A stretch of 64,000 bases of DNA, taken from positions 62,001-126,000 of the forward strand of contig DASQWI010000017.1 of NCBI GenBank assembly GCA_035640355.1, written 5' to 3'. This DNA is from Actinomycetota bacterium. Lineage in GTDB: Bacteria; Actinomycetota; UBA4738; HRBIN12. Positions 47,561 to 59,800 of this stretch are shown here, piece by piece; position 1 is the first letter of the stretch, and every line of letters starts with the position of its first letter. The notes under the pieces were generated by a model that saw nothing but the letters and a program-made list of their open reading frames with translations, did not search any database and was not told where the DNA came from. Position numbers and translations under genes: made by a program.

Positions 47561-47578
47561 TAACAGTGTTGACCTATG
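47553..47578 (+). other. attL
   Basis: The shared CTCGCGCA (47553-47560) is followed by the right attP half-arm: TAAC, AGTGTT (47565-47570), GACC and TATG (47575-47578). The comM reading is in frame up to the A of the core CA dinucleotide (47559-47560). Confidence 0.8.
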
Positions 47579-47598
47579 TACTCCGACGCGCGTAGGGT
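47569..47598 (+). promoter_or_regulatory. Integrase promoter overlapping attL
   Basis: TTGACC (47569-47574), an 18-base spacer and TAGGGT (47593-47598) stand just ahead of the integrase ATG (47605), predicting a leaderless mRNA. The -35 box lies inside the AGTGTT-GACC arm of the attachment site, so integrase bound at att could block its own promoter. Confidence 0.6.
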
Positions 47599-47604
47599 GC
47601 GCTA

Positions 47605-49014
47605 ATGGCCACCCGCGCCGCCAAGGTCGCGCCCCGCGCCGGTGTGTACGCGCGGATCTCGCACGACCGGATCGGCGACGAGCTCGGCGTCCGCCGGCAG
47701 CTCGCCGACTGCGAGAAGCTCGCGCGCTCCCGCGGGTTCACCATCACCGATCGGTATGTCGACAACGACGTCTCGGCCTACGCGGGGCGCCGAAGGCCGG
47801 AGTACGAGCGGATGCTTGCGGACTTGTCCGCCGGTCGCATCGGCGCGGTCGTCGCCTGGCACCCCGATCGGATTTACCGCCACCCCCGCGACCTCGAGGC
47901 GTTCGTCGAGACGATCGAGCAGGCCGGAGCGGCGGTGCTCACGGTCCAGGCCGGCGAGCTCGACCTGTCGACGGCGAGCGGTCGCATGGTCGCCAGGATG
48001 CTCGGCGCCGCTGCGCGGTACGAGTCCGAGCACAAGGCCGAGCGGCAGCGTCGCAAGCACCGCGAGCTCGCGGAGGCCGGCAAGCCGGTCGGCGGGGGAG
48101 ACCGGCCGTTCGGTTTCGAGGATGACCGCGTCGGCATCCGCGAGGGCGAAGCACACGAGATCCGCGACGCCGTTGAGCGTCTGATCGCCGGCGCGTCGAT
48201 GCGGAGCATCTGGCTCGACTGGCGGCATCGCGGCGTGCGCTCGCCGCGGGGGACCGACTGGCAGGTCGCCTCGCTCAAGCGGATGTTCGTCTCGCCGCGG
48301 ATCGCCGGGCTGCGCGAGCACCGAGGCGTCGTCGTCGGTCCGGCCGTCTGGCCCGCCGTCATCACGCCGGAGCAGCACGAGGCCGTCGTCGCGATCCTGG
48401 CCGATCGTTCGCACCCGCGCGCACCGGCAAGGCGGTACTTGCTCACCGGCGGAGTGTTGCGCTGCGGACGGTGCGGCGCCGCGATGGTCGCTCGGCCCAA
48501 CGATCGGCGTCAGCCGCGTTACGCGTGCACCGTGGACGCTGGCGGCTGCAACCGAATGTTCCACCTGGCCGAGCCGCTCGAGGACTTCATCCGCGACGCT
48601 ATCTTGATAGCACTCGACGGTCCGGCGCTGCGCGCGCTTGCCGCTGGCGTCGCGACGGACGATCCGCCCACCGAGGTAGCCGCGGAGCTTGCCGCACTCG
48701 AGGATCGTCGCCGTGAGGCCGCGGGCGCCTACTCCTCCGGCGAGATCTCGCTCGAGGCCTTCCGCGCCGCCGACCGCGATCTGGCCGGACGGATCGACCA
48801 CGCCCGCGACGAGCTTCGCTCGCGCTCGCGCGCAACCATGGCGGCCGCGCTGCCGACGTCGGCCGACGAGCTCGCGGCGTGGTGGGAGCAGGCGAGCCTC
48901 GACGAGCGGCGGACCCTGCTCGCTCTCGTCGTCGAGGGCGTCGTGCTGAACCCCGGCGTTCCAGGACGGAGCAGGTTCGATCCCGCTCGCGTTGAGATCG
49001 TCTGGCGGGCCTAG
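47605..49014 (+). CDS. Large serine integrase
   Basis: A 469-residue large serine recombinase. The resolvase catalytic domain has the nucleophile Ser19 in YARISHD and continues with RIGAVVAWHPDRIYR. A recombinase domain follows, then a zinc ribbon with CGRCG and a second Cys pair around ACTVDAGGC. A coiled-coil region (about 355-420) is likely the inter-subunit motif controlling direction. It recombines attP with comM attB. ATG 47605 abuts its promoter. Confidence 0.95.
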   Translation: MATRAAKVAPRAGVYARISHDRIGDELGVRRQLADCEKLARSRGFTITDRYVDNDVSAYAGRRRPEYERMLADLSAGRIGAVVAWHPDRIYRHPRDLEAFVETIEQAGAAVLTVQAGELDLSTASGRMVARMLGAAARYESEHKAERQRRKHRELAEAGKPVGGGDRPFGFEDDRVGIREGEAHEIRDAVERLIAGASMRSIWLDWRHRGVRSPRGTDWQVASLKRMFVSPRIAGLREHRGVVVGPAVWPAVITPEQHEAVVAILADRSHPRAPARRYLLTGGVLRCGRCGAAMVARPNDRRQPRYACTVDAGGCNRMFHLAEPLEDFIRDAILIALDGPALRALAAGVATDDPPTEVAAELAALEDRRREAAGAYSSGEISLEAFRAADRDLAGRIDHARDELRSRSRATMAAALPTSADELAAWWEQASLDERRTLLALVVEGVVLNPGVPGRSRFDPARVEIVWRA

Positions 49015-49325
49015 AGCTGCGGCGCGTACATCGACGTGACGACAGGAGCCCTCCCGGGCTCGTCGTGACGCCAGGCGAGGGGGTCACCGTCGGGGTTGAT
49101 ATACGCGAGGTGCTCCCGAGTGTTCTCGTCGAAGCCGCGCAGGACGTTCGGCATCTCCCGCGCGAGTCGGTTGAGAAGCTTCCGATGCTTCTCGCCGGTC
49201 CCGACGACGAGGATCGTCTCGTCCTCGCGGCCCGCGATCTCACGTCTAAGCCGCTTCAAGTTGTACTCGGGCGTGAGGGTGATCCGAGGTTGCGCGATCA
49301 CTCTCACTAGTGTAACTTCAGGCAT
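49011..49325 (-). CDS. Hypothetical protein convergent with the integrase
   Basis: A 104-residue protein with mixed alpha/beta character (MPEVTLVRVIAQPRITL, LVVGTGEKHRKLLNRLAREMPNVLRGFD). No domain recognised. It overlaps the integrase stop by four bases and is divergent from the XRE gene, a position where phage directionality factors or Cro-like regulators can occur. The CACTAGTG palindrome at 49305-49312 is inside its first codons. Confidence 0.55.
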   Translation of the reverse strand: MPEVTLVRVIAQPRITLTPEYNLKRLRREIAGREDETILVVGTGEKHRKLLNRLAREMPNVLRGFDENTREHLAYINPDGDPLAWRHDEPGRAPVVTSMYAPQL

Positions 49326-49407
49326 GTAGTCTGCAAGTCGCTGCTCGGCTGGTGTGCCGATAGGCGCGCTCTCTCTGCCAGGCGACCCGATCCGAAGGAG
49401 GATCAGG

Positions 49408-49644
49408 TTGGCTGGCTTTTTCACTTTCGACGGCCCGGCTCTCCGGGAGCTCCGCGAGGCCAAGGGCTGGCGACGTGAGCACCTTGCGCTGACGCTGGGC
49501 GTGAGCGCCGGCGCTGTCGACCACTGGGAGAGCGGACGCCGCAGCCCCTCCCGCATGACGGTCATTCGGCTCGCTGCGGTTCTGGGCTGTCATCCGCGGG
49601 ACCTCCTCGCCGAGGACCCACTGCACGCCGGGATGTCGGCGTGA
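49408..49644 (+). CDS. XRE-family HTH regulator
   Basis: A 78-residue protein with a Cro/CI-type helix-turn-helix: ALRELREAKGWRREHLALTLGVSAGAVDHWESGRRSPS. Probably the element's repressor. The start is a TTG at 49408: AAGGAGGA sits six bases upstream, while alternative GTG starts further up lack a ribosome site. It overlaps the next small ORF by four bases (GTGA). Confidence 0.8.
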   Translation: MAGFFTFDGPALRELREAKGWRREHLALTLGVSAGAVDHWESGRRSPSRMTVIRLAAVLGCHPRDLLAEDPLHAGMSA

Positions 49645-49793
49645 TCGACCGCGAGACCGTCCGCGCATCTCGTGAAGCGCAAGGCTTGCCCGCTCGCGTC
49701 GAGGATCCAACCGCGCTCCGCGCCGTCGTCGCGCTCATCCGCCGTAGACCCGTTCGAAAGGCTCGCGTGGAGCGGAAGGCGGGGACCGGATGA
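49641..49793 (+). CDS. Small 50-residue ORF
   Basis: GTG-started, Arg-rich, with a short helix-forming N-terminus and an RRRPVRKARVERK tail. No domain recognised. It overlaps both neighbours by four bases, as expected of a translated phage-type operon. Confidence 0.45.
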   Translation: MIDRETVRASREAQGLPARVEDPTALRAVVALIRRRPVRKARVERKAGTG

Positions 49794-50230
49794 GTCCGCC
49801 TACAGACGAACGCACCCCCGGCTTGGGAACCGGAGGTGCGCAAGACCAGCAACCGGCTGAGAGCATAACCCGAGACGCGGACGCGGCCGACAAGGCTATC
49901 GCCGAGATCCGCCGGTGGGAACGTGCGGCGCGTCTGGTCGCAGACGATCCCGCCCTCTCGCTACGAGCCAAGTGCCGCGCGCTCCTCGAGATGACGGCCA
50001 GGGCGCGGCGGTCCGATATCGCCAGCTTCCTCGAGCATGCGATCTGGCGCGGTTGCGGCCACTTGTTCGAGGAGGACATCCGCGTCCCCACCGACGTCAT
50101 CGGTGCTATTCGCCGGCTTCGGCGACAAGGCCGCGACGCCTGCCCCACGTGCCTGCGGCCGCTCCCCGATCACGACGAGCTAGATCACTGGCGCGAACTC
50201 ATCCACAACTACAACAAGAGGCCGGCATGA
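49790..50230 (+). CDS. Hypothetical protein with zinc-knuckle tail
   Basis: A 146-residue protein. An acidic low-complexity start leads into a helical middle (AIAEIRRWERAARLV, ALLEMTARARRSDIASFLEHA) and ends in CPTCLRPLPDHDELDHW, a possible Cys/His metal site. ATG start overlapping the previous stop. Role unknown; it precedes the DUF3631 ATPase in a coupled operon. Confidence 0.6.
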   Translation: MSPPTDERTPGLGTGGAQDQQPAESITRDADAADKAIAEIRRWERAARLVADDPALSLRAKCRALLEMTARARRSDIASFLEHAIWRGCGHLFEEDIRVPTDVIGAIRRLRRQGRDACPTCLRPLPDHDELDHWRELIHNYNKRPA

Positions 50231-51594
50231 CGCCCGACGACGACCGCGCCACCCTCGAGCTCGTCGCCGAGGTAACGGAAGGACTCCCTCGGGAGACTCT
50301 GGCCGGTCTTCTCGACGATATCCGCTCGCACGTGAACCGGTTCATCGGCTTTACGTCGGACCACGCTCCGATCGCCATCGCATTGTGGGTCGCTCACTGC
50401 TACGTCGTGAGTGCCGCCGCGATCGCGGCCTATCTTCGGATCCGGTCGGCTGCCGAGGAGTCGGGCAAGTCGACGCTGCTCGAGGTGCTGCACCAGCTGC
50501 TCCGCACACGCGGCATCAACGCCGTCTCGGTCTCGCCGTCGGTGGTGTACCGACTGAGAGAGAAGGTCGGCCCGGTTGCGCTCCTGCTCGACGAGACCGA
50601 CAACGGCCTCGCCAAACGCCAGGACGACTCGGCGCGCGACCTGCTCTCGATCGTGAACGCCGGATACCGGGACTCGGCGATGGTGTACCGGACCGAGGGC
50701 CGCAGCTTCGAGCCGCGTGGGTTCAAGTGCTTCGGCCCGGCCGCGATCGCCGGCATCGGCTACCTCGAGCCGACGACGGAGTCACGGTGCATCCCGATCG
50801 TGCTCCCCCGGAAGCCGCGCGGGAGCCTGGAGCGGTTCCTGTCGTTCAAGGTGGAACCGGCAGCCAACCGGATCGCAGAGCGTCTGGAGGCGTGGGCGAC
50901 GCCGGACGTGATCGACACGCTCCGGGACGCCTCTCCTTTCTACCCGGCCGAGCTCCGTGATCGCCACGTCGAGGTCTGGTGGAACTTGTTCGCGATCGCC
51001 GACCTCGCTGGGGAAGGCTGGCCCGAGGCCGCACGCGCTGCCGCGGTGGCGCTCCATGTAGGTGATGACGACGAGTCCGTCTACTCGGTCGGCGTGCTCC
51101 TGCTCTCACATGTGCTCCGCGCGTTCACCGAGCGCGACGCCGACCGGCTCCCCACGGCAGAGCTGCTCGAGCTCCTGGCCGCGAACGAGGAGGGCCCATG
51201 GGGCCGCTGGTGGAGCACCGAGCTAAACCGCGATGGCCCCCCTCGTGCGGCCGCGGCCGACCTGGCTCGCAAGCTGAAGGCGTTCCCAAAGCCGGACGGC
51301 AAGCCGATCAAGCCCGGCGTGATCCGGATGCCCGATGGATCGACCCCCCGCGGCTATCACCGTGATGACTTCGAGGCGGCGTGGGCGGCCTATCTGGGGT
51401 TTGGGTCCCCCCACGCAACGGATGCAACACATGCAACGCCCCTGGCCAGCACCGTTGCGTCTGTTGCGTCTGTTGCGTCCCCCCACCCAAACGAGGCAGA
51501 GGAGGCCGAGGCTCCGAAGTGCGTTCGGTGCGCGCGGTATGGGCCGGATCACCTCGGCGCCCATGTCTCGGTCTGGCCCGGAGGTGCGGCGTGA
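50227..51594 (+). CDS. DUF3631-type P-loop protein (replication/primase-like)
   Basis: A 455-residue protein of the actinophage DUF3631 type. AAEESGKSTLLEVL (about 75-88) is the Walker A, and VALLLDETDNGL the Walker B-like motif. The C-terminal part ends with a Cys-rich CVRCARYGPDH segment. Relatives lie in phage and plasmid replication modules, so helicase/primase support is likely. Codons for HATDATHAT...TVASVASVAS sit on a 26+26-base inverted repeat (51413-51478). ATG 50227 overlaps the previous stop. Confidence 0.75.
   Translation: MTPDDDRATLELVAEVTEGLPRETLAGLLDDIRSHVNRFIGFTSDHAPIAIALWVAHCYVVSAAAIAAYLRIRSAAEESGKSTLLEVLHQLLRTRGINAVSVSPSVVYRLREKVGPVALLLDETDNGLAKRQDDSARDLLSIVNAGYRDSAMVYRTEGRSFEPRGFKCFGPAAIAGIGYLEPTTESRCIPIVLPRKPRGSLERFLSFKVEPAANRIAERLEAWATPDVIDTLRDASPFYPAELRDRHVEVWWNLFAIADLAGEGWPEAARAAAVALHVGDDDESVYSVGVLLLSHVLRAFTERDADRLPTAELLELLAANEEGPWGRWWSTELNRDGPPRAAAADLARKLKAFPKPDGKPIKPGVIRMPDGSTPRGYHRDDFEAAWAAYLGFGSPHATDATHATPLASTVASVASVASPHPNEAEEAEAPKCVRCARYGPDHLGAHVSVWPGGAA
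51413..51478 (+). repeat. Inverted array of three ACGCAAC-type 9-mers
   Basis: Left arm 51413-51438 holds three direct copies of a GCAACR-type 9-mer. Right arm 51453-51478 holds three copies of GTTGCGTCT in the opposite sense. The arms match in 22 of 26 positions, with a 14-base loop containing CTGGCCAG. It can fold into a long hairpin in DNA or RNA and resembles an iteron array. Lies inside the DUF3631 gene. Confidence 0.7.
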
Positions 51595-52502
51595 GCGCCG
51601 TTACGGACAGCGACCGTCGCGCGCGCGGCGACGCCAGCAGCCGTAACGGGCACAAAGGTCAACCCAATCTGCCGGGCTTCGAGCCTTCGCAGCTGGACTA
51701 CGAGTCCCGGGTCATCGCGCTCCGAGCCCTGGTCACCGGACAGAGCTCCGAATACGAGTTCTGGCACGAGGTCGATGGAAAGCGCTTCGACGGCCTGACG
51801 ATCGGGCTGGACGAGGAGGGGCGGCTATGGGGCGCCACGTGGGCGACTTGGCTCGAGGGCGCACTACAGGAACGCCGCCAGGAGGAACGGGCCGCTCGAG
51901 TCCGACAACGCGCGGAGGAGATGGAGGAGGCTCGTCGCCGGATCCATGCATTCCGCGAGGGAAGTGTCACGGATACGGCTCGCGCGGTCGCTGTGTCACT
52001 GGAAGCCGTCACGACGCTGGAGCGCGCGATCAAGTGGGACCAGCCGATCCCTCACAAGAGGGTCGACATGCCGAACGCGCTGCAATGGATTATGTGGCGG
52101 GCGAAGGACGGCGCCGGCCACGACGAGGAACCCTGTGGCTTCTGCGCCGGGCGGTCCCCGCGTTACTACCGCTCCATGTGCGACGAGCATTTGCTCGAGT
52201 GCTTCCGGAGGGAGGTCCGCGAGCGGATCTGGGAGTGCACAGCATGTGGCCGCGGCTACCTCAGTCGCCGTCGCTGGGAAGACCGCGTCGGGTACTGCTC
52301 GGACGAGTGCGAGGTCGTTACGAAAGTCGATGCCGCTCGCGCGCGGCGTACCGATAGCCGTAACGCGCTCGGGCTACGTTGCCAGGTCTGCGACGAGGTG
52401 ATCGACGCTGGCCGCTCCGACGCTCGCTACTGCTCGCCGGCCTGCCGGCAGAAGGCCTACCGATCGAGGAGAACGCGGCGTGATCCCGCGCGCACGCTGT
52501 GA
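51591..52502 (+). CDS. Multi-zinc-finger hypothetical protein
   Basis: A 303-residue protein. A helical, Arg/Glu-rich middle is followed by at least three cysteine clusters: CGFCAGRSPRYYRSMCDEH, CTACGRGYL...CSDEC and CQVCDEVIDAGRSDARYCSPACRQKAYRSRR. The last resembles the C-terminal zinc modules common in actinophage proteins. Nucleic-acid binding is likely; specific role unknown. GTG overlapping the previous stop. Confidence 0.65.
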   Translation: MSAVTDSDRRARGDASSRNGHKGQPNLPGFEPSQLDYESRVIALRALVTGQSSEYEFWHEVDGKRFDGLTIGLDEEGRLWGATWATWLEGALQERRQEERAARVRQRAEEMEEARRRIHAFREGSVTDTARAVAVSLEAVTTLERAIKWDQPIPHKRVDMPNALQWIMWRAKDGAGHDEEPCGFCAGRSPRYYRSMCDEHLLECFRREVRERIWECTACGRGYLSRRRWEDRVGYCSDECEVVTKVDAARARRTDSRNALGLRCQVCDEVIDAGRSDARYCSPACRQKAYRSRRTRRDPARTL

Positions 52503-52668
52503 GTTCTGCGGCGAGGGCCTCGCAGTGGGAGATGCCGTGATCTTCGGTCCGTCGCCCTCGGCCGAAGTGCTCACGTCCCTTGCCGAGCGGTTCATGGCGG
52601 GCGAGGAGGTTGAGCTCGTGTTCTTGCATCCGGAGTGCGACGCCCTTATCGATGGAGGCTCAGCGTGA
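52480..52668 (+). CDS. Small zinc-ribbon protein
   Basis: A 62-residue protein starting MIPRARCEFCGEGL and ending with HPECDALI, a CxxC...HxxxC metal site around a helical middle. The GTG start lies inside the preceding gene's end (22-base overlap). Role unknown. Confidence 0.5.
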   Translation: MIPRARCEFCGEGLAVGDAVIFGPSPSAEVLTSLAERFMAGEEVELVFLHPECDALIDGGSA

Positions 52669-52841
52669 GCGGCTCGGTCCTTGAGGCTCGGTGCCACAAG
52701 GTCGCCTTCGGGAGCGAGGCCGAGGCCATGCGGCGATTGATCGAGCTCGCGCTGAAAGCACCTCGCCGCGAGAACTTGCCGGTCCGCGCCTATCGCTGTC
52801 CAGGGTGTGAGGCCTGGCACCTCACGAGGCGAGCAACATGA
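52665..52841 (+). CDS. Small zinc-ribbon protein
   Basis: A 58-residue protein. CHKVAFGSEAEAMRRLIELAL followed by VRAYRCPGCEAWHLTRR is a pattern often found in small prophage proteins. It overlaps both neighbours by four bases. Role unknown. Confidence 0.55.
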   Translation: MSGSVLEARCHKVAFGSEAEAMRRLIELALKAPRRENLPVRAYRCPGCEAWHLTRRAT

Positions 52842-53173
52842 GCAGCGTCCTGCCGGTCCAGTGCGCTGAGCCACGATGTGCCCGTCGGGCGATCCCCGGT
52901 CGTGGACGATGCGAGTTGCACGGCGGGCGGGCCTGGCTGGGCACCCACCCCATGCCCCGAGGCTGGTCCCGACTCAGGGCCCAGGTACTCCTCGAGGAGC
53001 CTCGGTGTCGATCGTGCGGGGGACCGAGCACCGAGGTCGACCACGTCTTGGCCCGAGCCAACGGTGGGACGGACGATCGAGCCAACCTGGCCGCCCTCTG
53101 TTCGGCCTGCCACGCAGCGAAGACCGTCCGCGATCGAACCGACGCGCGTCGGCGGAAGCGAGCGGCGAGATGA
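52838..53173 (+). CDS. HNH endonuclease
   Basis: A 111-residue HNH nuclease: CRSCGGPSTEVDHVLARANGGTDDRANLAALCSACHAAK carries two CxxC metal knuckles and the DH...N...H active site. In HK97-type phages such a gene next to terminase is needed for packaging-site cleavage. A Cys/His N-terminal knot (CAEPRCARRAIPGRGRCELH) precedes it. Confidence 0.9.
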   Translation: MSSVLPVQCAEPRCARRAIPGRGRCELHGGRAWLGTHPMPRGWSRLRAQVLLEEPRCRSCGGPSTEVDHVLARANGGTDDRANLAALCSACHAAKTVRDRTDARRRKRAAR

Positions 53174-53183
53174 CCTCGCATTT

Positions 53184-53267
53184 TTTCCCGCGGCGTGTTC
53201 AAGAGCGGCAATCTTCGGCGGGAGGCGCCGCCGCGTTTCCCCGCCGCCGTTTTCAAACGCAGCAACC
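53184..53267 (+). repeat. Imperfect direct repeats upstream of the terminase genes
   Basis: Two about 31-base units (53184-53213 and 53236-53267) share TTTCCC, a GT-TTCAA block and a GC-GCAA block, separated by a GC-rich inverted segment. Their place between the HNH and terminase genes suggests a packaging (cos/pac) or promoter region. Function is inferred. Confidence 0.4.
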
Positions 53268-53307
53268 GCCCAGAACGGCCTAGAACGACCGGAGAGGAGC
53301 AGATGAC

Positions 53308-53580
53308 GTGAGCGATCGACCGAAGGTCCCACCGCCGAGCGATGAGGCCCTGAACGACGTGGCGGCCGCCGTCCAAAGGGCGTTGACGCGTCCAGGTGAC
53401 GAGCTCGACGGCATGTTCATGTTCGCCACGGCACTCGCGCCCGATGGCCAGCGGTACATGCAGGCCATGATGTGGCCGACCGAGCAGGCCGACGAGATCC
53501 GCGAGGCTCTGCGCCGGTTCCTCGACGGCCGCCCCGGCTGGGAAGGCGGCCCGTCGTGGGAGGAGCCCGATGCCGAATAG
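53308..53580 (+). CDS. Hypothetical protein upstream of TerS
   Basis: A 90-residue acidic protein: a helical start (EALNDVAAAVQRALTRPGDEL), a hydrophobic FMFATALAP segment, and WPTEQADEIREALRRFLDG with an acidic tail. No domain recognised. GTG start with GGAGAGGAG upstream; overlaps TerS. Confidence 0.55.
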   Translation: MSDRPKVPPPSDEALNDVAAAVQRALTRPGDELDGMFMFATALAPDGQRYMQAMMWPTEQADEIREALRRFLDGRPGWEGGPSWEEPDAE

Positions 53581-54040
53581 GCCCAAGCCCGTCGAACGCA
53601 AGCGCCGCGCGGGCAACCCCGGCAAGCGGGCGTTGCCGAAGCCCGTCGCGATCGTTCCTGCCGTCGACGGCATTCCTCGGGCGCCCGTGCCGCTCGATCG
53701 AGCGGGCCGCGATCTGTGGCGCACGATCTGGTCCGAGGCCTCGGAGTGGTTGGCGCCTTCGGACGTCCCGATGGTCGCGCTGCTCGCGCAGTTCGCCGAC
53801 GAGCGCGCCCGGTGGCTCGCCCTGGTCGACGAGGAGGGACTGACGCACACCACGGCCCACAAGACCATGCGCGTGCATCCCGGAGTGAGTGAGGTTCGCC
53901 GCCTCGAGGCGGCCATGATCACCGTGATGTCGCTGCTCGGTCTGTCGCCGTCGGACCGCGCCCGACTCGGACTCACCGAGGTGCGCAAGCTCTCCGGTCT
54001 GGCCGACCTGATGCAACGGAGGCAGCGTGACCTCGGGTAG
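53570..54040 (+). CDS. Phage terminase small subunit, P27 family
   Basis: A 156-residue TerS. The basic KRRAGNPGKRALPKP start, GRDLWRTIWSEASEWLAPSDVPMVALLAQFADE middle and SPSDRARLGL end match the P27 family that recognises the packaging site. It overlaps TerL by 14 bases. Confidence 0.88.
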   Translation: MPNRPKPVERKRRAGNPGKRALPKPVAIVPAVDGIPRAPVPLDRAGRDLWRTIWSEASEWLAPSDVPMVALLAQFADERARWLALVDEEGLTHTTAHKTMRVHPGVSEVRRLEAAMITVMSLLGLSPSDRARLGLTEVRKLSGLADLMQRRQRDLG

Positions 54041-55490
54041 GAACGCAACCTCTGAGGGTGCGTTCGTCATCGAGTTCATCGAGCGCCACTGCTGCTTGAC
54101 CAAGGGCACACGCGCGGGCGAGCGCGTGCATCTCTTGCAGTGGCAGAAGGACCTGATCACCGACCTGTTCGCGCTCGATGTGTCGCGGCGCCGTTACAGA
54201 CGCGCCTATGTGCAGATGGCGAGGAAGAACGGCAAGACGTTCCTGATGGCCTGTGTCGCCCTGTACGAGGCCGTGGTGGGGGAAATGGGGGGCGAGGTCT
54301 ATTTCGTCGCTGGCGACCGGATGCAGGCGTCGCGTGCCTTCGGTGAGATCCGCAAGATCGCCGAGGCCGACGACGAGCTCCGCGGTCTGTTCACGTTCTA
54401 CAAACACGCGGCCGAGATCCCGTCGTCGGGCACGGTCCTTCGAGTGCTATCCGCAGACGCCGGGTTGCAGCTCGGACTCGAGCCATCGTTCACCGTGTTC
54501 GACGAGGTCGCGGTGCAACCGAACGATCGGTTGTGGAACGCGATGTCGCTCGGTTCCGGATCGCGCGAACACCCGATGCTCGTCGGCATCTCAACACCGG
54601 GATGGGAGCGCGACTCGCTCGCATACAAGCTGTACATGCACGGCAAGAAGATCGACGCCGGCGAGATCGAGGACCCGACGTTCTACTTCAAGGCCTATGA
54701 GCCGTCCGACGTCGACGCCGATCACACCGACCCGAAGGTGTGGGCCGAGGCCAACCCGTCGCTCGGCGCGTTCCTTCACGCGGAAGACTTCGCCGCTGCC
54801 CTTGCGTCCACCGACGAGAACGAGTTCCGGCGGTTCCGGCTGGGCCAGTGGACCGCGACGCATTCGGTCGCGTTCACGTCCGGAGTGTGGGACGCCGCGA
54901 AAGATCGCTCGCGAGCGACCATTCCCGAGGGCACGGACGTCGTGGTTGCGTTCGTCGCCGCGCGCAAACGTGACGCCGTCGCCATCGTCGGCTGCACCGT
55001 GGACGACCCGCACATCTTCCCCATCAAGATCTGGGAAGACTCCAACCGGGTCGATCCGAACGACGTCGCCGAGGAGCTCCGCGATGTGTGGCGTCGGTAC
55101 GACGTGCGCGACCTCGTGTGCTCTCAACGGGACTGGTCCTGGGTCCTGCTCTCACTCGCCGAGGAGGGTCTGCCGGTCGCGGCCGTCCCGCGTTCTCCTC
55201 AACGGCTGGCCTCGGAGTGGCAGGTGTTCTTCGACGCCGTCACCGAGAAGCGCGTGACGCACGACGGCGACCCTGTGCTCGCGCGCCACGTCGGGAACCT
55301 CTCGCTCATCTCGGGACCCTCGGGCCCGCGGCCGGACCTGGACGTCGCCGAGGGCCAGCCGGTGGCGGCCGCGCTCGCCGCGATCATCGCGTTCGACACG
55401 GTCGCGCGCTTCGAACCCGCTGCCGACCTCCGAGTCATCCTGCCGTCATGGGTCGAGTCGGGGAGCACGCCGCCGGAGGTGGTCGGATAG
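54027..55490 (+). CDS. Phage terminase large subunit
   Basis: A 487-residue packaging motor. The ATPase half has a Walker A-like MARKNGKTF (about 64-72) and Walker B VFDEV. The nuclease half follows from about 300. The usual first RNase H-like aspartate (GFDGS-type) is AFVAARKRD here, and the second acidic position reads CSQRDW, so nuclease activity may be lost. With TerS and the HNH it forms a packaging set, but no portal or capsid gene is present. Confidence 0.85.
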   Translation: MTSGRNATSEGAFVIEFIERHCCLTKGTRAGERVHLLQWQKDLITDLFALDVSRRRYRRAYVQMARKNGKTFLMACVALYEAVVGEMGGEVYFVAGDRMQASRAFGEIRKIAEADDELRGLFTFYKHAAEIPSSGTVLRVLSADAGLQLGLEPSFTVFDEVAVQPNDRLWNAMSLGSGSREHPMLVGISTPGWERDSLAYKLYMHGKKIDAGEIEDPTFYFKAYEPSDVDADHTDPKVWAEANPSLGAFLHAEDFAAALASTDENEFRRFRLGQWTATHSVAFTSGVWDAAKDRSRATIPEGTDVVVAFVAARKRDAVAIVGCTVDDPHIFPIKIWEDSNRVDPNDVAEELRDVWRRYDVRDLVCSQRDWSWVLLSLAEEGLPVAAVPRSPQRLASEWQVFFDAVTEKRVTHDGDPVLARHVGNLSLISGPSGPRPDLDVAEGQPVAAALAAIIAFDTVARFEPAADLRVILPSWVESGSTPPEVVG

Positions 55491-55546
55491 CAGGAACGCA
55501 TCGTCATGCAGCCGTCCTACAGTCGCGAAACGAGAGGAGAAATGAC

Positions 55547-55918
55547 ATGTTCGGTCTGAAGAAGAAGGGTCCCGACACGGTGTTCATCCACACCGACGAC
55601 TGCAAGATCTGGAAGGCCGATCCAAACGTCGAGATCCCCTGGTCCTATGTCGGTGACGGGCTCTGGAAGGCAGAGTGCGTGTGCACGCACGAGTTCTGGC
55701 GTGAGCCCATCACCGACAAACGTCCTCGGCAGGATCCGCTCGATCCGAAGACGTCGCGTCACATGCCGGAGTGCGAGTTCGCCGGCGAGACCGAGCCCTC
55801 CGTCCTCCGGCTCGTCCTGAGGGTCCAGGAGGGCGCGGGTGGAACCTATTGGTTGGTGCAGTGCGCCGTCTGCGACGCCGGCTGGCAAGTCGCGCACTAC
55901 GCCAGGGAGACCGGGTGA
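55547..55918 (+). CDS. Hypothetical Cys/His/Trp-rich protein
   Basis: A 123-residue protein: DCKIWKADPNVEIPWSYVGDGLWKAECVCTHEFW, HMPECEF and VQCAVCDAGWQVAHY. Several Cys/His pairs suggest metal binding. Similar small proteins lie after terminase in some actinophages; role unknown. ATG 55547 follows GAGAGGAG. It converges on the excisionase-like gene. Confidence 0.6.
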   Translation: MFGLKKKGPDTVFIHTDDCKIWKADPNVEIPWSYVGDGLWKAECVCTHEFWREPITDKRPRQDPLDPKTSRHMPECEFAGETEPSVLRLVLRVQEGAGGTYWLVQCAVCDAGWQVAHYARETG

Positions 55919-55929
55919 GGACGCATCCG

Positions 55930-56124
55930 TTACCGCCAGGGCTTGGCCTGCCGCCATGTCCTCGCCCACGTCGTGACCTCTCGTCTATTCCATACGCGCC
56001 CTCGAACGTCCTCGGCGACTGGAGCGGGAAAGCCCGGCTCGCCCACGAGCTGATGTGCTCGCTGCTTGGTGACGCCGAGAAGCTCGGCGACGTCGACGAG
56101 GCGGATAGTTGCGGCCTGGGTCAT
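55930..56124 (-). CDS. AlpA/Xis-like HTH protein (candidate directionality factor)
   Basis: A 64-residue MerR/AlpA-type winged helix: IRLVDVAELLGVTKQRAHQLVGEPGFPAPVAEDVRGRVWNRREV. Such proteins are excisionases or AlpA-like activators. It could steer the serine integrase toward excision. A TAACGT hexamer ends eight bases before the ATG, suggesting a leaderless mRNA. Divergent from the DprA-like gene, sharing a 146-base control region. Confidence 0.75.
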   Translation of the reverse strand: MTQAATIRLVDVAELLGVTKQRAHQLVGEPGFPAPVAEDVRGRVWNRREVTTWARTWRQAKPWR

Positions 56125-56132
56125 GCAGTTTG

Positions 56133-56138
56133 ACGTTA
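56133..56138 (-). promoter_or_regulatory. -10-like box of the Xis-like gene
   Basis: TAACGT on the minus strand lies eight bases ahead of the ATG at 56124. The divergent region (56125-56270) also has two copies of TACGTTCG (56141-56148 and 56244-56251), possible operators. Confidence 0.35.
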
Positions 56139-56270
56139 TCTACGTTCGCGTTGACCCGTGCATTTGGCGGTGTGGCCACGCTCCCGAGCAGCTGCGAGTC
56201 TCGTGTCGATGGGTACGTGTATCGTCCCAAACCCATGCGAACATACGTTCGATTGAGAAGGAGGCGGACC

Positions 56271-57206
56271 GTGAGTGTGCGTGAGGAGCAGCGCGACCTC
56301 CTCGCCCTATGCGCAATCCCTAATGTGAACTGGAGCCTGCTGGCCCGGGAGGCGCAACGACCGGGTGGCCTCGCACGGCTCTGGCGCGCCGAGGTCACCG
56401 AGAAGACAGATCAGGCGCGGACAGCATCCGAGCTCCTCGCGGTGGCGCTCGCGAACCCTAGGAATCTGACCAGGCGCGTCGATGACGAGGTCCGCCAGCT
56501 CCCCGGGGGCGTGCGTCTGTGCACCGTGCTCGACGACGAATATCCCTCGAATCTCCGCCTGATCGCGAACCTCCCGCCATTCCTGTTCTACCTGGGTGAG
56601 CTCCGCGGATCCGATGCCTTTTCGGTTGCCGTCGTGGGAACACGTACACCGTCCGCTCTTGGCGTGCAGGAGGCGGATCGTCTTTCGAGGGAGCTCGCGG
56701 GACGCGACGTCACTGTCCTGTCCGGTCTCGCGCTCGGCATCGATACTGCCGCTCACCGCGGAACTCTTGCCGCCCGCGGACGAACGATCGCTGTAGTCGG
56801 GACAGGAATCCGGACGTGCTATCCGAAGGAGAACGCCGGGCTCGCGAGCGATATCGTTTCCTCAGGTGGTGCGGTCGTCTCGCAGTTCTGGCCGTCGGCA
56901 CCCCCGACGAAGTCCTCATTCCCCATGCGCAATGTCGTCTCGTCTGGCATGAGTCAGGGGACAGTCGTGATCGAGGCGACCGGGATGTCAGGTGCGCGGA
57001 ACCAGGCACGGCGAGCCCTTGAGCAGGGCAAGAAGGCGTTCCTGCTGCGCGATCGGGTCACGTCGCAGCAGTGGGCTAGGCGCTACCTCGAGCGCGGTGC
57101 GATCGAGGTCAGCACCGTCGACGAGATTCTCCCCTTGCTTCGTGCGCCAGAGGTCATCGAGCACTTATCGGACAGGCGCAGGCAGCTCGCACTCGAGCTC
57201 GCGTAG
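56271..57206 (+). CDS. DprA-like SLOG-domain protein (cargo module gene 1)
   Basis: A 311-residue protein. The helical N-terminal part (about 1-110) is not conserved with DprA. The SLOG/Rossmann part has AVVGTRTPSALG, LSGLALGIDTAAHRGTL, GTGIRTCYPKENA, SSFPMRNVVSSGM and VVIEATGMSGA. It lacks the winged-helix C-terminus of DprA. It has a TTA leucine codon (57165), uncommon here. The start GTG 56271 has AAGGAGG six bases upstream. It is followed by the PRTase, and as a SLOG protein may bind a nucleotide signal or act as an antitoxin. Confidence 0.85.
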   Translation: MSVREEQRDLLALCAIPNVNWSLLAREAQRPGGLARLWRAEVTEKTDQARTASELLAVALANPRNLTRRVDDEVRQLPGGVRLCTVLDDEYPSNLRLIANLPPFLFYLGELRGSDAFSVAVVGTRTPSALGVQEADRLSRELAGRDVTVLSGLALGIDTAAHRGTLAARGRTIAVVGTGIRTCYPKENAGLASDIVSSGGAVVSQFWPSAPPTKSSFPMRNVVSSGMSQGTVVIEATGMSGARNQARRALEQGKKAFLLRDRVTSQQWARRYLERGAIEVSTVDEILPLLRAPEVIEHLSDRRRQLALELA

Positions 57207-57228
57207 GGGACGTACCCAACCCGCGTCG

Positions 57229-57987
57229 ATGCTCGATATACAGCGTCTCGATCCTCCACCGGCAGGGTTCGGCAAATGCTCCGGCTGCCCCTATCTAGAT
57301 CACGGTGCTGCGGCGATCTGCTTCGCCTGTGCGTCCAGTCGTCTGGAGCCCCTCGCCGAGCTGCGGTGTGATGTCTGCGATCTTGAGCTCGGGGAGACGG
57401 GGTTATGTCAGAACCCGGTGTGCAACTTCTCGGACCGCGGTTTCCGGTACGTGTACGCGATCTCGATGATGACGGGTCCTCTTCGCAAGGCGATCCTTCG
57501 CTACAAGTACGAAGACGTTCGCCGGTGGGCCGATATCTTCGGCCGCGTTCTCGCCGGCTATCTCGATGAGAACGAGGCGGCATTCAAGCGGTTCGACATC
57601 ATCGCCCCGAGCCCTACCTATGTCGGTTCGGGCGGGCGCGAGTGGGACCACACCGAAGCAATCGTTCAGGTAGCCGCCGATGAGAGCGAGACCGACTGGC
57701 CGTTCCAGCTCGAACGCCCGTACGTCATAGAGCAAGTGCGCCCGACGCCGAGGTTTGTGGAGCAGAAGAGATGGCAGGACCGCCGGCACCTAGCCGAGGG
57801 AGAGTTCCGTCGCTCACTCCTGGTGCCCGACCAAGACCGGGTGTCTGGGCAGTCGATACTCCTAATCGACGACGTCTTCACTGACGGCCTTCGGACACGG
57901 GAAGTCGCGCTCGCTCTCCAGAGCCAGGGAGCGACCGAGGTCTCGCAGGTCGTTCTCGCACGGCAGCCGTACCGACCGAAGTCATAG
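57229..57987 (+). CDS. Zinc-ribbon phosphoribosyltransferase (cargo module gene 2)
   Basis: A 252-residue protein of ComF-like layout. The N-terminal zinc ribbons are KCSGCPYLDHGAAAICFACA and LRCDVCDLELGETGLCQNPVC. The PRTase domain follows, with LLIDDVFTDGLRTRE as the PRPP loop (about 218-232). TTA (57403) and ATA codons and lower G+C set it apart from host genes. Its 3' end is 20 bases from attR. With the DprA-like gene it may form a toxin-antitoxin or defence pair in which the PRTase modifies a nucleotide or nucleic acid. Confidence 0.85.
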   Translation: MLDIQRLDPPPAGFGKCSGCPYLDHGAAAICFACASSRLEPLAELRCDVCDLELGETGLCQNPVCNFSDRGFRYVYAISMMTGPLRKAILRYKYEDVRRWADIFGRVLAGYLDENEAAFKRFDIIAPSPTYVGSGGREWDHTEAIVQVAADESETDWPFQLERPYVIEQVRPTPRFVEQKRWQDRRHLAEGEFRRSLLVPDQDRVSGQSILLIDDVFTDGLRTREVALALQSQGATEVSQVVLARQPYRPKS

Positions 57988-57994
57988 CGGGCGA

Positions 57995-58018
57995 CATAAG
58001 CGAACACTCGCGCACAAC
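57995..58018 (+). other. attR
   Basis: Left attP half-arm CATA (57995-57998), AGCG, AACACT (58003-58008) and CGCGCA, the last ending at 58014. CTCGCGCA is at 58007-58014. From 58015 the sequence continues in frame as comM (caac, then GGCGTG). Confidence 0.8.
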
Positions 58019-58663
58019 GGCGTGCTGTTCCTCGACGAGCTCACTGAGTTCCGCCGTGACGCGCTCGAGGGACTTCGGCAGCCGCTCGAGGACGGACGGG
58101 TCGTCGTGACGCGTGTGATCGGTTCCGTGGAGTTCCCGGCTCGGTTCACGCTCGTCGCGGCGGCGAACCCCTGCCCGTGCGGCTACGACGGTGATGTCTC
58201 GCGCCGGTGCACGTGCCGCACAGACCGCGTCGAGATCTATCGGTCCAAGCTGTCGGGACCGTTGCTCGATCGGGTCGACATCCGACTGACGATCCCCAGG
58301 CTCACCAAACAGGAGCTGCTCGGGCAGTCGGCCGGCGAGCCCTCGGCGGCCGTCCGCGGACGCGTCGAGGAGGCGCGCGATCGCCAGCGCGTGCGCTACG
58401 CGACGCTCGGTTTCCACTGCAACGCGCAGCTGCCGGGTCCGGTCGCGCGGCGACACATGAGAGTGGCTCCGGCGGCCGAAGAGCTCCTGGCCAACGCGGT
58501 CGAGACGCATTCGCTGAGCGGACGCGGCTTCGATCGCGCGCTGAAGGTCGCGCGGACGATCGCGGATCTCGCCGGGGCAGAACGCGTGAATGCCGACCAC
58601 GTCGTCGAGGCGCTCGCGTACCGAACGGCGATCTCCGCCGAAGGCCTGGTCCGTGCGGGCTGA
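58015..58663 (+). pseudogene. comM: comM, 3' part
   Basis: Continues ComM from Walker B: GVLFLDELTEFRRDALEGLRQPLEDG, AANPCPCGYDGD, CTCRTDRVEIYRSKLSGPLLDRVDIR and LSGRGFDRALKVARTIADLAGAE. When joined to 46674-47560 at the core dinucleotide it gives a 511-residue protein, the normal size. On its own it has only an internal GTG (58022) start, so is unlikely to be made. It overlaps the dprA start by 11 bases. Confidence 0.92.
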
Positions 58664-59800
58664 GGCAGGTCCGGCAGGCGCGTGGCCGGCGGAATTCGCC
58701 TCGACGGCGGAGGACCGCCGCGCCGTCCTGGTTCTCTCGTCGCTCCGCGGCATCACCCCGCGCAAGCTGATCGACGTCGCGGCGGAGCGTCGGACGGCTT
58801 CGGCGACGCTCGCATGGATCCGCGAGGGAAGAGCCGGGAGCGACAACGACGTCGCGTACGCGAACGAGCTCGACGGGCACGAGATCGAGCGCGCCCTCGT
58901 GGCTTGTGGAGCGCGCGTCGTCCACTGGGGTCGCCCGAGTACCCGAGTCAACTCACCACGATCCACGACCCGCCGGCGGCGATCTTCGTGATCGGCCGCT
59001 CTCTGCCCGACGTGGTCCACGCGGTGGCCGTCGTCGGGGCCCGGTCGTGCTCGGAGCTCGGCCGCGACATCGCGCGCGACGTGGGACGTGCGCTGTCGCT
59101 CGCCGGCGTGGACGTCGTGAGCGGTGCCGCTCGTGGCGTCGACTTCGCCGCGCACGAAGGAGCGCTCGCGGCCGGCGGCCGAACGGTCGCCGTGATGGGC
59201 TCGGGCATCGGTTCGGTCTACCCGGCGGGCAGCAGGCGTCTCGTCGAACGGATCGCGGTGACCGGCACGATCATCAGCGAGTACCCGCCGCGACGGCCGC
59301 CCAGCCACTACAGCTTCCCGGCGCGCAACCGCATCGTCGCGGGGCTCGCACGCGCCACGGTCGTCGTCGAGGGCGCGCGGGGAAGCGGCTCACTCATCTC
59401 CGCCGAGCACGCGATGGAGTTCGGCCGGGACGTGTTCGCCGTGCCGGGCGCCGTGACGAACGCGCTCGCCGAGGTTCCGCTCCAACTGATCCGCGACGGC
59501 GCGACGATGATCCGCAGTGCCGAGGACCTCCTGAACGACCTGGGGCTCCAGCTCGTCGTCGGTGAGGTCGCAGATCGTGTCGAGCTCTCGGACGCCGAGC
59601 GCGACGTGCTCGCTCATCTCGGGACCCCGATCCTGCCCGACCGGCTCGGGCCACTCGTCGGCTCGACCGTCCCGGAGGTGGTGGCCGTGCTGATGCGCTT
59701 GGAGCTGCGTGGGTTCGTCAGGAACGTCGGCGGACGCTACGAGACGACCCTCACGGGAGCCGCACCGCAGCGTTCCGCACCTGGCGTCGTCGAGCATTGA
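58653..59800 (+). pseudogene. dprA: dprA, apparent one-base frameshift
   Basis: Host DprA/Smf, which loads RecA on incoming ssDNA. The first 93 codons (58653-58931; RAVLVLSSLRGITPRKLIDVA... GARVVHWG) are in one frame. The rest, from SPEYPSQL (58931) with VVGARSCSELG, SGAARGVDFAAHEGAL and a C-terminal winged helix, is in another. One base is missing near 58928-58931 (TGGGG-TCGCCC). The body ends at 59800. It could be a real inactivation, a sequencing error, or recoding; the gene is otherwise intact. Confidence 0.8.

What the first reader, a model, noticed from the sequence alone, without database searches (positions are those of the whole stretch)
56271..57987. Two-gene DprA-like (SLOG) plus zinc-ribbon phosphoribosyltransferase cargo module
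At the right end of the comM element, a DprA-related protein without the DprA winged helix and with a new N-terminal domain lies 22 bases before a ComF-like PRTase with double zinc ribbons. Both have TTA leucine codons and lower G+C than host genes. SLOG proteins bind nucleotide signals, and a DprA-family antitoxin is known in the PsyrTA toxin-antitoxin/defence system, whose toxin includes a PRTase-type domain. I recall no description of this compact form without a helicase. It could be a defence, superinfection-exclusion or addiction module. The function is inferred.
Basis: partly seen in the sequence, partly recalled or inferred. Interest (0 to 1): 0.85.

Follow-up and report, generated by a model that had tools for sequence, protein, structure and literature searches.

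The report
ShosTA-type anti-phage gene pair
A small mobile element sitting inside a bacterial competence gene carries a two-gene pair that closely resembles ShosTA, an already described toxin-antitoxin anti-phage system, so the pair is a new member of a known kind rather than a new system.

Summary
A 311-aa DprA/SLOG protein without winged helix (56271-57206) lies 22 bases before a 252-codon PRTase with eight conserved zinc-ribbon cysteines (57229-57987), at the right end of a ~10.4-kb element that splits comM.

The novelty claim fails. Compact DprA+PRTase pairs without a helicase are ShosTA: toxin-antitoxin history, validated phage defence from a P2-like prophage, solved structures (8zva; 8zvb-d), and prior reports from actinobacterial prophages and plasmids.

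Pairing is strongly conserved. 23 of 26 close PRTase relatives have a DprA-like gene directly adjacent, against 0 of 87 ComF-type ones. Searching viral contigs with the SLOG protein alone, 16 of 26 loci have a PRTase ORF directly downstream. Gordonia and Burkholderia phages and Streptomyces plasmids carry the same arrangement. The SLOG protein groups with PRTase-paired proteins, not the host DprA.

Best reading: a ShosTA-type toxin-antitoxin/defence cargo, PRTase toxin and DprA-like antitoxin, of a ComF-like zinc-ribbon lineage that lacks the HAD-like region of E. coli ShosT. Toxicity, neutralisation and defence are inferred from relatives. PADLOC's ShosA model does not discriminate, because ordinary DprA scores nearly as well.

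The parts
56271..57206 (+). DprA/SLOG protein without winged helix, ShosA-like putative antitoxin, 311 aa
   Evidence: preceded by AAGGAGG ribosome-binding site in the sequence
57229..57987 (+). ComF-like double-zinc-ribbon PRTase, ShosT-like putative toxin/effector, 252 aa
47565..58004 (.). ~10.4-kb integrated element inside comM that carries the pair as its right-end cargo
   Evidence: comM halves end/resume here; imperfect repeat CTCGCGCAYAAC at both junctions
47605..49014 (+). large serine recombinase (integrase) of the element
   Evidence: Resolvase, Recombinase and Zn_ribbon_recom; phrog_95 integrase
52838..53173 (+). HNH endonuclease of the element
53570..54040 (+). terminase small subunit of the element
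54027..55490 (+). terminase large subunit of the element

Best explanation
The pair is a ShosTA-type module: a PRTase toxin/effector (57229-57987) held in check by, or having its damage repaired through, the co-transcribed DprA-like SLOG protein (56271-57206). It is carried as cargo by a phage-derived or satellite-like element integrated in comM. On infection by a competing phage the balance is lost, the PRTase acts through PRPP and nucleotide metabolism, and the cell is damaged before the phage completes its cycle; between infections the pair may also stabilise the element. Shown here: anatomy, conserved pairing, mobile distribution, clade membership apart from housekeeping DprA and ComF, and retention of the DD..T.G core of the PRPP loop. 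Inferred from E. coli ShosTA: co-transcription, toxicity, neutralisation, trigger and defence.
For: Pairing: 23 of 26 close PRTase relatives have a DprA-like gene adjacent on the same strand, against 0 of 87 ComF-type PRTases (Fisher p 4e-21); the Streptomyces pairs measured overlap by 4 bases. The SLOG-only viral search found a PRTase ORF directly downstream in 16 of 26 loci. Annotated pairs occur near integrase/repressor genes of Gordonia phages Vasanti and Bosnia, in Burkholderia phage Mana and on Streptomyces, Kitasatospora and Embleya plasmids. Tree: P0001 falls on the PRTase-paired side, with that group on one side of a branch in 92% of bootstrap trees. Structure: the P0001 model matches DprA and solved ShosA 8zva; the P0002 model matches ComF first, with ShosT 8zvd/8zvb among the next hits. 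Literature: a DprA+PRTase pair from a P2-like prophage protects against T7 and lambda; ShosTA is reported in actinobacterial prophages and plasmids; ShosT toxicity and ShosA rescue are summarised in PMC12593503.
Against: No toxicity or defence data were found for this lineage. P0002 hits PADLOC ShosT only weakly (1.3e-3) and ComF proteins hit it too. PADLOC ShosA is not diagnostic: an ordinary intact DprA scores 2e-60. P0002 lacks the HAD-like N-terminal region of E. coli ShosT (weak Pfam match), so any pyrophosphatase activity may be absent. Its PRPP loop is DDVFTDGLR instead of ComF's DDVFTTGAT. Its nearest relative (Geodermatophilus, L014) is unpaired.
Confidence: 0.8

Rival explanations
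1. The pair is a competence-related module: DprA-like and ComF-like proteins encoded by an element that destroys comM, acting on incoming single-stranded DNA, either to block transformation-mediated loss of the element or to help its own recombination.
For: Insertion in comM directly upstream of host dprA; both proteins resemble competence proteins; best structural hit of P0002 is H. pylori ComF.
Against: Closest homologous pairs are on Streptomyces plasmids and in Gordonia phages without any comM link in the stretches read. Pairs whose PRTase lacks the ComF-like zinc ribbons occur in Burkholderia and E. coli phages. The SLOG protein lacks the winged helix.
Confidence: 0.1
2. The pair is an addiction or plasmid/prophage maintenance toxin-antitoxin module without a dedicated anti-phage role.
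For: Plasmid and prophage distribution; shosTA was known as a toxin-antitoxin pair before its defence role (cited in PMC9122126).
Against: A DprA+PRTase pair from a P2-like prophage gave direct protection in E. coli. Not exclusive of the best explanation.
Confidence: 0.1

Closest known systems
ShosTA (DprA-like ShosA + PRTase ShosT; E. coli, P2-like prophage hotspot)
   Same: Two-gene operon of DprA/SLOG then PRTase in the same order, no helicase, prophage cargo; SLOG model matches 8zva and PRTase model matches 8zvb-d
   Different: E. coli ShosT is 424 aa with a HAD-like N-terminal region and no zinc ribbons; here the PRTase is 252 aa with double zinc ribbons
DprA+ComF-family pairs of Streptomyces, Kitasatospora and Embleya plasmids and chromosomes
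   Same: Same order, full-length homology (47-51% SLOG, 33-38% PRTase), same eight cysteines
   Different: 4-base overlap instead of a 22-base gap; PRPP loop mostly DDVFTSGSQL instead of DDVFTDGLRT
PsyrTA / RqlHI
   Same: DprA-like antitoxin and PRTase-domain toxin
   Different: Toxin there is a RecQ-type helicase fused to the PRTase; no helicase here
Housekeeping DprA and ComF
   Same: Same folds
   Different: Separate clades; DprA keeps the winged helix; ComF-type relatives are not adjacent to DprA (0 of 87)

Membership tests
ShosTA | Adjacent DprA/SLOG and PRTase genes in one operon | tested here: met
   22-base gap, same strand; pairing conserved in relatives; co-transcription itself not testable
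ShosTA | No RecQ helicase in the toxin | tested here: met
   P0002 is 252 aa, zinc ribbons plus PRTase only
ShosTA | SLOG protein groups with PRTase-paired proteins, not with housekeeping DprA | tested here: met
   92% of bootstrap trees have the group on one side of a branch; E. coli-type ShosA sits on a very long branch, so direct kinship with it is unresolved
ShosTA | Specific match to ShosA and ShosT profiles | tested here: inconclusive
   ShosA 3e-65, ShosT 1.3e-3, but ordinary DprA (2e-60) and ComF match as well
ShosTA | HAD-like N-terminal region of the E. coli toxin | tested here: not met
   Absent in P0002; also not detected in Burkholderia phage Mana ShosT, which matches PADLOC ShosT at 1.2e-41, so it is not a requirement of the broad family
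ShosTA | PRTase toxic alone, neutralised by the SLOG protein; phage protection | not testable with these tools
   needs bench work
PsyrTA | RecQ-type helicase fused to the PRTase | tested here: not met
   P0002 matches only positions 617-684 of the 689-position PsyrT model
Housekeeping ComF | ComF family score and PRPP loop DDVFTTGxT | tested here: not met
   TIGR00201 28 bits against a cutoff of 233.55; loop DDVFTDGLRT; separate clade at 100/100

The most novel reading that the evidence does not exclude
The zinc-ribbon, HAD-free PRTases paired with SLOG proteins form a mechanistically distinct actinobacterial branch in which a ComF-derived, DNA-binding PRTase is the effector (for example acting on DNA ends or ssDNA), rather than the nucleotide-pool toxin described for E. 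coli ShosT.
Probability: 0.25. Interest if true: 0.55.

Novelty: new member of a known kind. Interest (0 to 1): 0.3.

Why it matters
It extends ShosTA-type cargo to a small terminase-bearing element in an actinobacterial-type MAG lineage. It also shows that in one branch the paired PRTase is a ComF-like zinc-ribbon protein with a changed PRPP loop, which gives a concrete variant to test beside E. coli ShosT. It does not reveal a new kind of system.

Tried and rejected
PADLOC profile identity as proof of ShosA: rejected, because ordinary DprA scores 2e-60 and ComF proteins hit ShosT/PsyrT. An earlier control with the window's own dprA ORF was flawed, because that gene is out of frame near 58930; I repeated it with the intact same-genus gene. 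Viral-contig searches with the PRTase, alone or as an alignment, found nothing; the SLOG alignment worked. A DprA paralogue in family member G010 (L143) looked promising at 46% identity, but no PRTase was seen beside it and it falls outside the paired group. Relatives of the whole element were sought with TerL; only TerS, TerL or HNH were shared, never the pair. No promoter or terminator consensus was found. The primary paper on the ShosTA mechanism (Nat Commun 16, 3141) is not held, so its content is taken from a review.

Full report
OBSERVATION. The first is a DprA-family SLOG protein (DNA_processg_A 2.4e-58) that ends after the SLOG domain, with no DprA_WH match. The DprA of a same-genus genome does have the winged helix. 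The second has eight cysteines in two zinc-ribbon-like sets, invariant in 20 relatives, and a C-terminal type I PRTase domain (weak Pfam match; AlphaFold2 model with mean pLDDT 90). Each gene carries one TTA codon and has lower GC than its surroundings. The 'new N-terminal domain' is less new than stated: the model shows a small helical bundle, and the structural alignment to pneumococcal DprA spans 301 columns against a 282-residue chain.

SURROUNDINGS. comM is split. Its left half ends near 47564 and its right half resumes near 58005, while a same-genus genome carries the stretch uninterrupted at about 96% protein identity. An imperfect repeat CTCGCGCAYAAC lies at both junctions. The ~10.4-kb insert starts with a large serine recombinase and holds an HTH gene, a DUF3631 protein, an HNH endonuclease and both terminase subunits. 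No capsid, portal or tail gene was recognised, and the pair sits at the right end. A satellite-like element or a reduced prophage are both possible; I did not resolve this.

DISTRIBUTION OF THE PAIR. PRTase relatives were collected without using the DprA-like gene. Their profile scores fall in two groups with no values between 155 and 91 bits. In the upper group 23 of 26 have a DprA-like gene adjacent on the same strand; in the lower, ComF-type group 0 of 87 do (Fisher p about 4e-21; many rows are close Streptomyces relatives, so the p value overstates independence). The three exceptions are L014, L126 and L040. In the Streptomyces-type loci measured the two genes overlap by 4 bases. The reverse test, searching viral contigs with the SLOG alignment only, gave 26 loci, of which 16 have a PRTase ORF directly downstream on the same strand; several of these contigs are near copies. 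Annotated records show the pair near integrase or repressor genes of Gordonia phages Vasanti and Bosnia, in Burkholderia phage Mana, and on Streptomyces, Kitasatospora and Embleya plasmids. Among 60 other genomes of the same genus, family, order or phylum the PRTase had only weak ComF-type matches (best E 7e-9), which fits acquisition by a mobile element.

PHYLOGENY AND STRUCTURE. The SLOG protein groups with PRTase-paired proteins, away from the housekeeping DprAs of the same family and order (one side of a branch in 92% of bootstrap trees). E. coli-type ShosA and Burkholderia ShosA sit on very long branches, so their exact relation is open. The PRTase falls in a 100/100 clade of mostly paired PRTases, next to the unpaired Geodermatophilus protein. 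ComF-type PRTases read DDVFTTGAT in the PRPP loop. The paired clade mostly reads DDVFT[ST]GSQ, the window DDVFTDGLR, and E. coli ShosT DDFCTEGNA. The shared acid residue before the glycine in the window and in E. coli ShosT is suggestive only. Fold searches match P0001 to DprA and ShosA 8zva, and P0002 to ComF 7p0h first, with ShosT 8zvd/8zvb among the next hits at modest scores.

WHAT IS KNOWN. ShosTA is that form. A DprA+PRTase pair from a P2-like prophage protects E. coli against T7 and lambda, and the authors connect it to shosTA and rqlHI (PMC9122126). ShosTA is listed among systems in actinobacterial prophages (PMC10023795) and described as often plasmid-encoded in Actinobacteria (PMC10482375). 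A review summarises ShosT as a phosphoribosyltransferase and pyrophosphatase toxin that disturbs purine metabolism, with ShosA counteracting it and T7 Gp0.7 as a trigger (PMC12593503). For RqlHI the PRTase domain is needed for toxicity (PMC4670107).

LIMITS. PADLOC's ShosA model gives 3e-65 for P0001 but also 2e-60 for an ordinary DprA, and ShosT/PsyrT models hit ComF proteins, so profile names alone prove nothing. The case rests on pairing, mobile context and phylogeny. The PRTase here lacks the HAD-like region of E. coli ShosT, so its chemistry may differ. No toxicity or defence measurement was found for this lineage.

VERDICT. A real and intact-looking ShosTA-type module, carried as cargo on a small element in comM. 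It is a new member of a known kind, in a ComF-like zinc-ribbon branch that deserves a functional test.

Noticed in passing
window 47565-58004: The comM element encodes a serine integrase, HNH, TerS and TerL but no recognisable capsid, portal or tail genes: possibly a phage satellite or a reduced prophage.
   Followed up: partly
window 58635-59797, near 58930: Host dprA, directly after comM, is out of frame by one base compared with the intact gene of a same-genus genome; real inactivation or an assembly error. With split comM this would hit two competence genes in a row.
   Followed up: partly
L014 4995-5732: Geodermatophilus carries a solitary relative of the window PRTase (40% identity) with loop DDVYSEGFS and no DprA-like gene in the held stretch.
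   Followed up: partly
L126 1477-2148: Genome G228 has a second, unpaired PRTase of this clade besides a paired one (L103).
   Followed up: no
L016 4986-5726 and the other DprA-paired PRTases of alignment A4: Most DprA-paired PRTases have Q in place of the last Thr of the ComF PRPP loop (DDVFTTGAT to DDVFTSGSQ), a possible signature of the paired lineage.
   Followed up: partly
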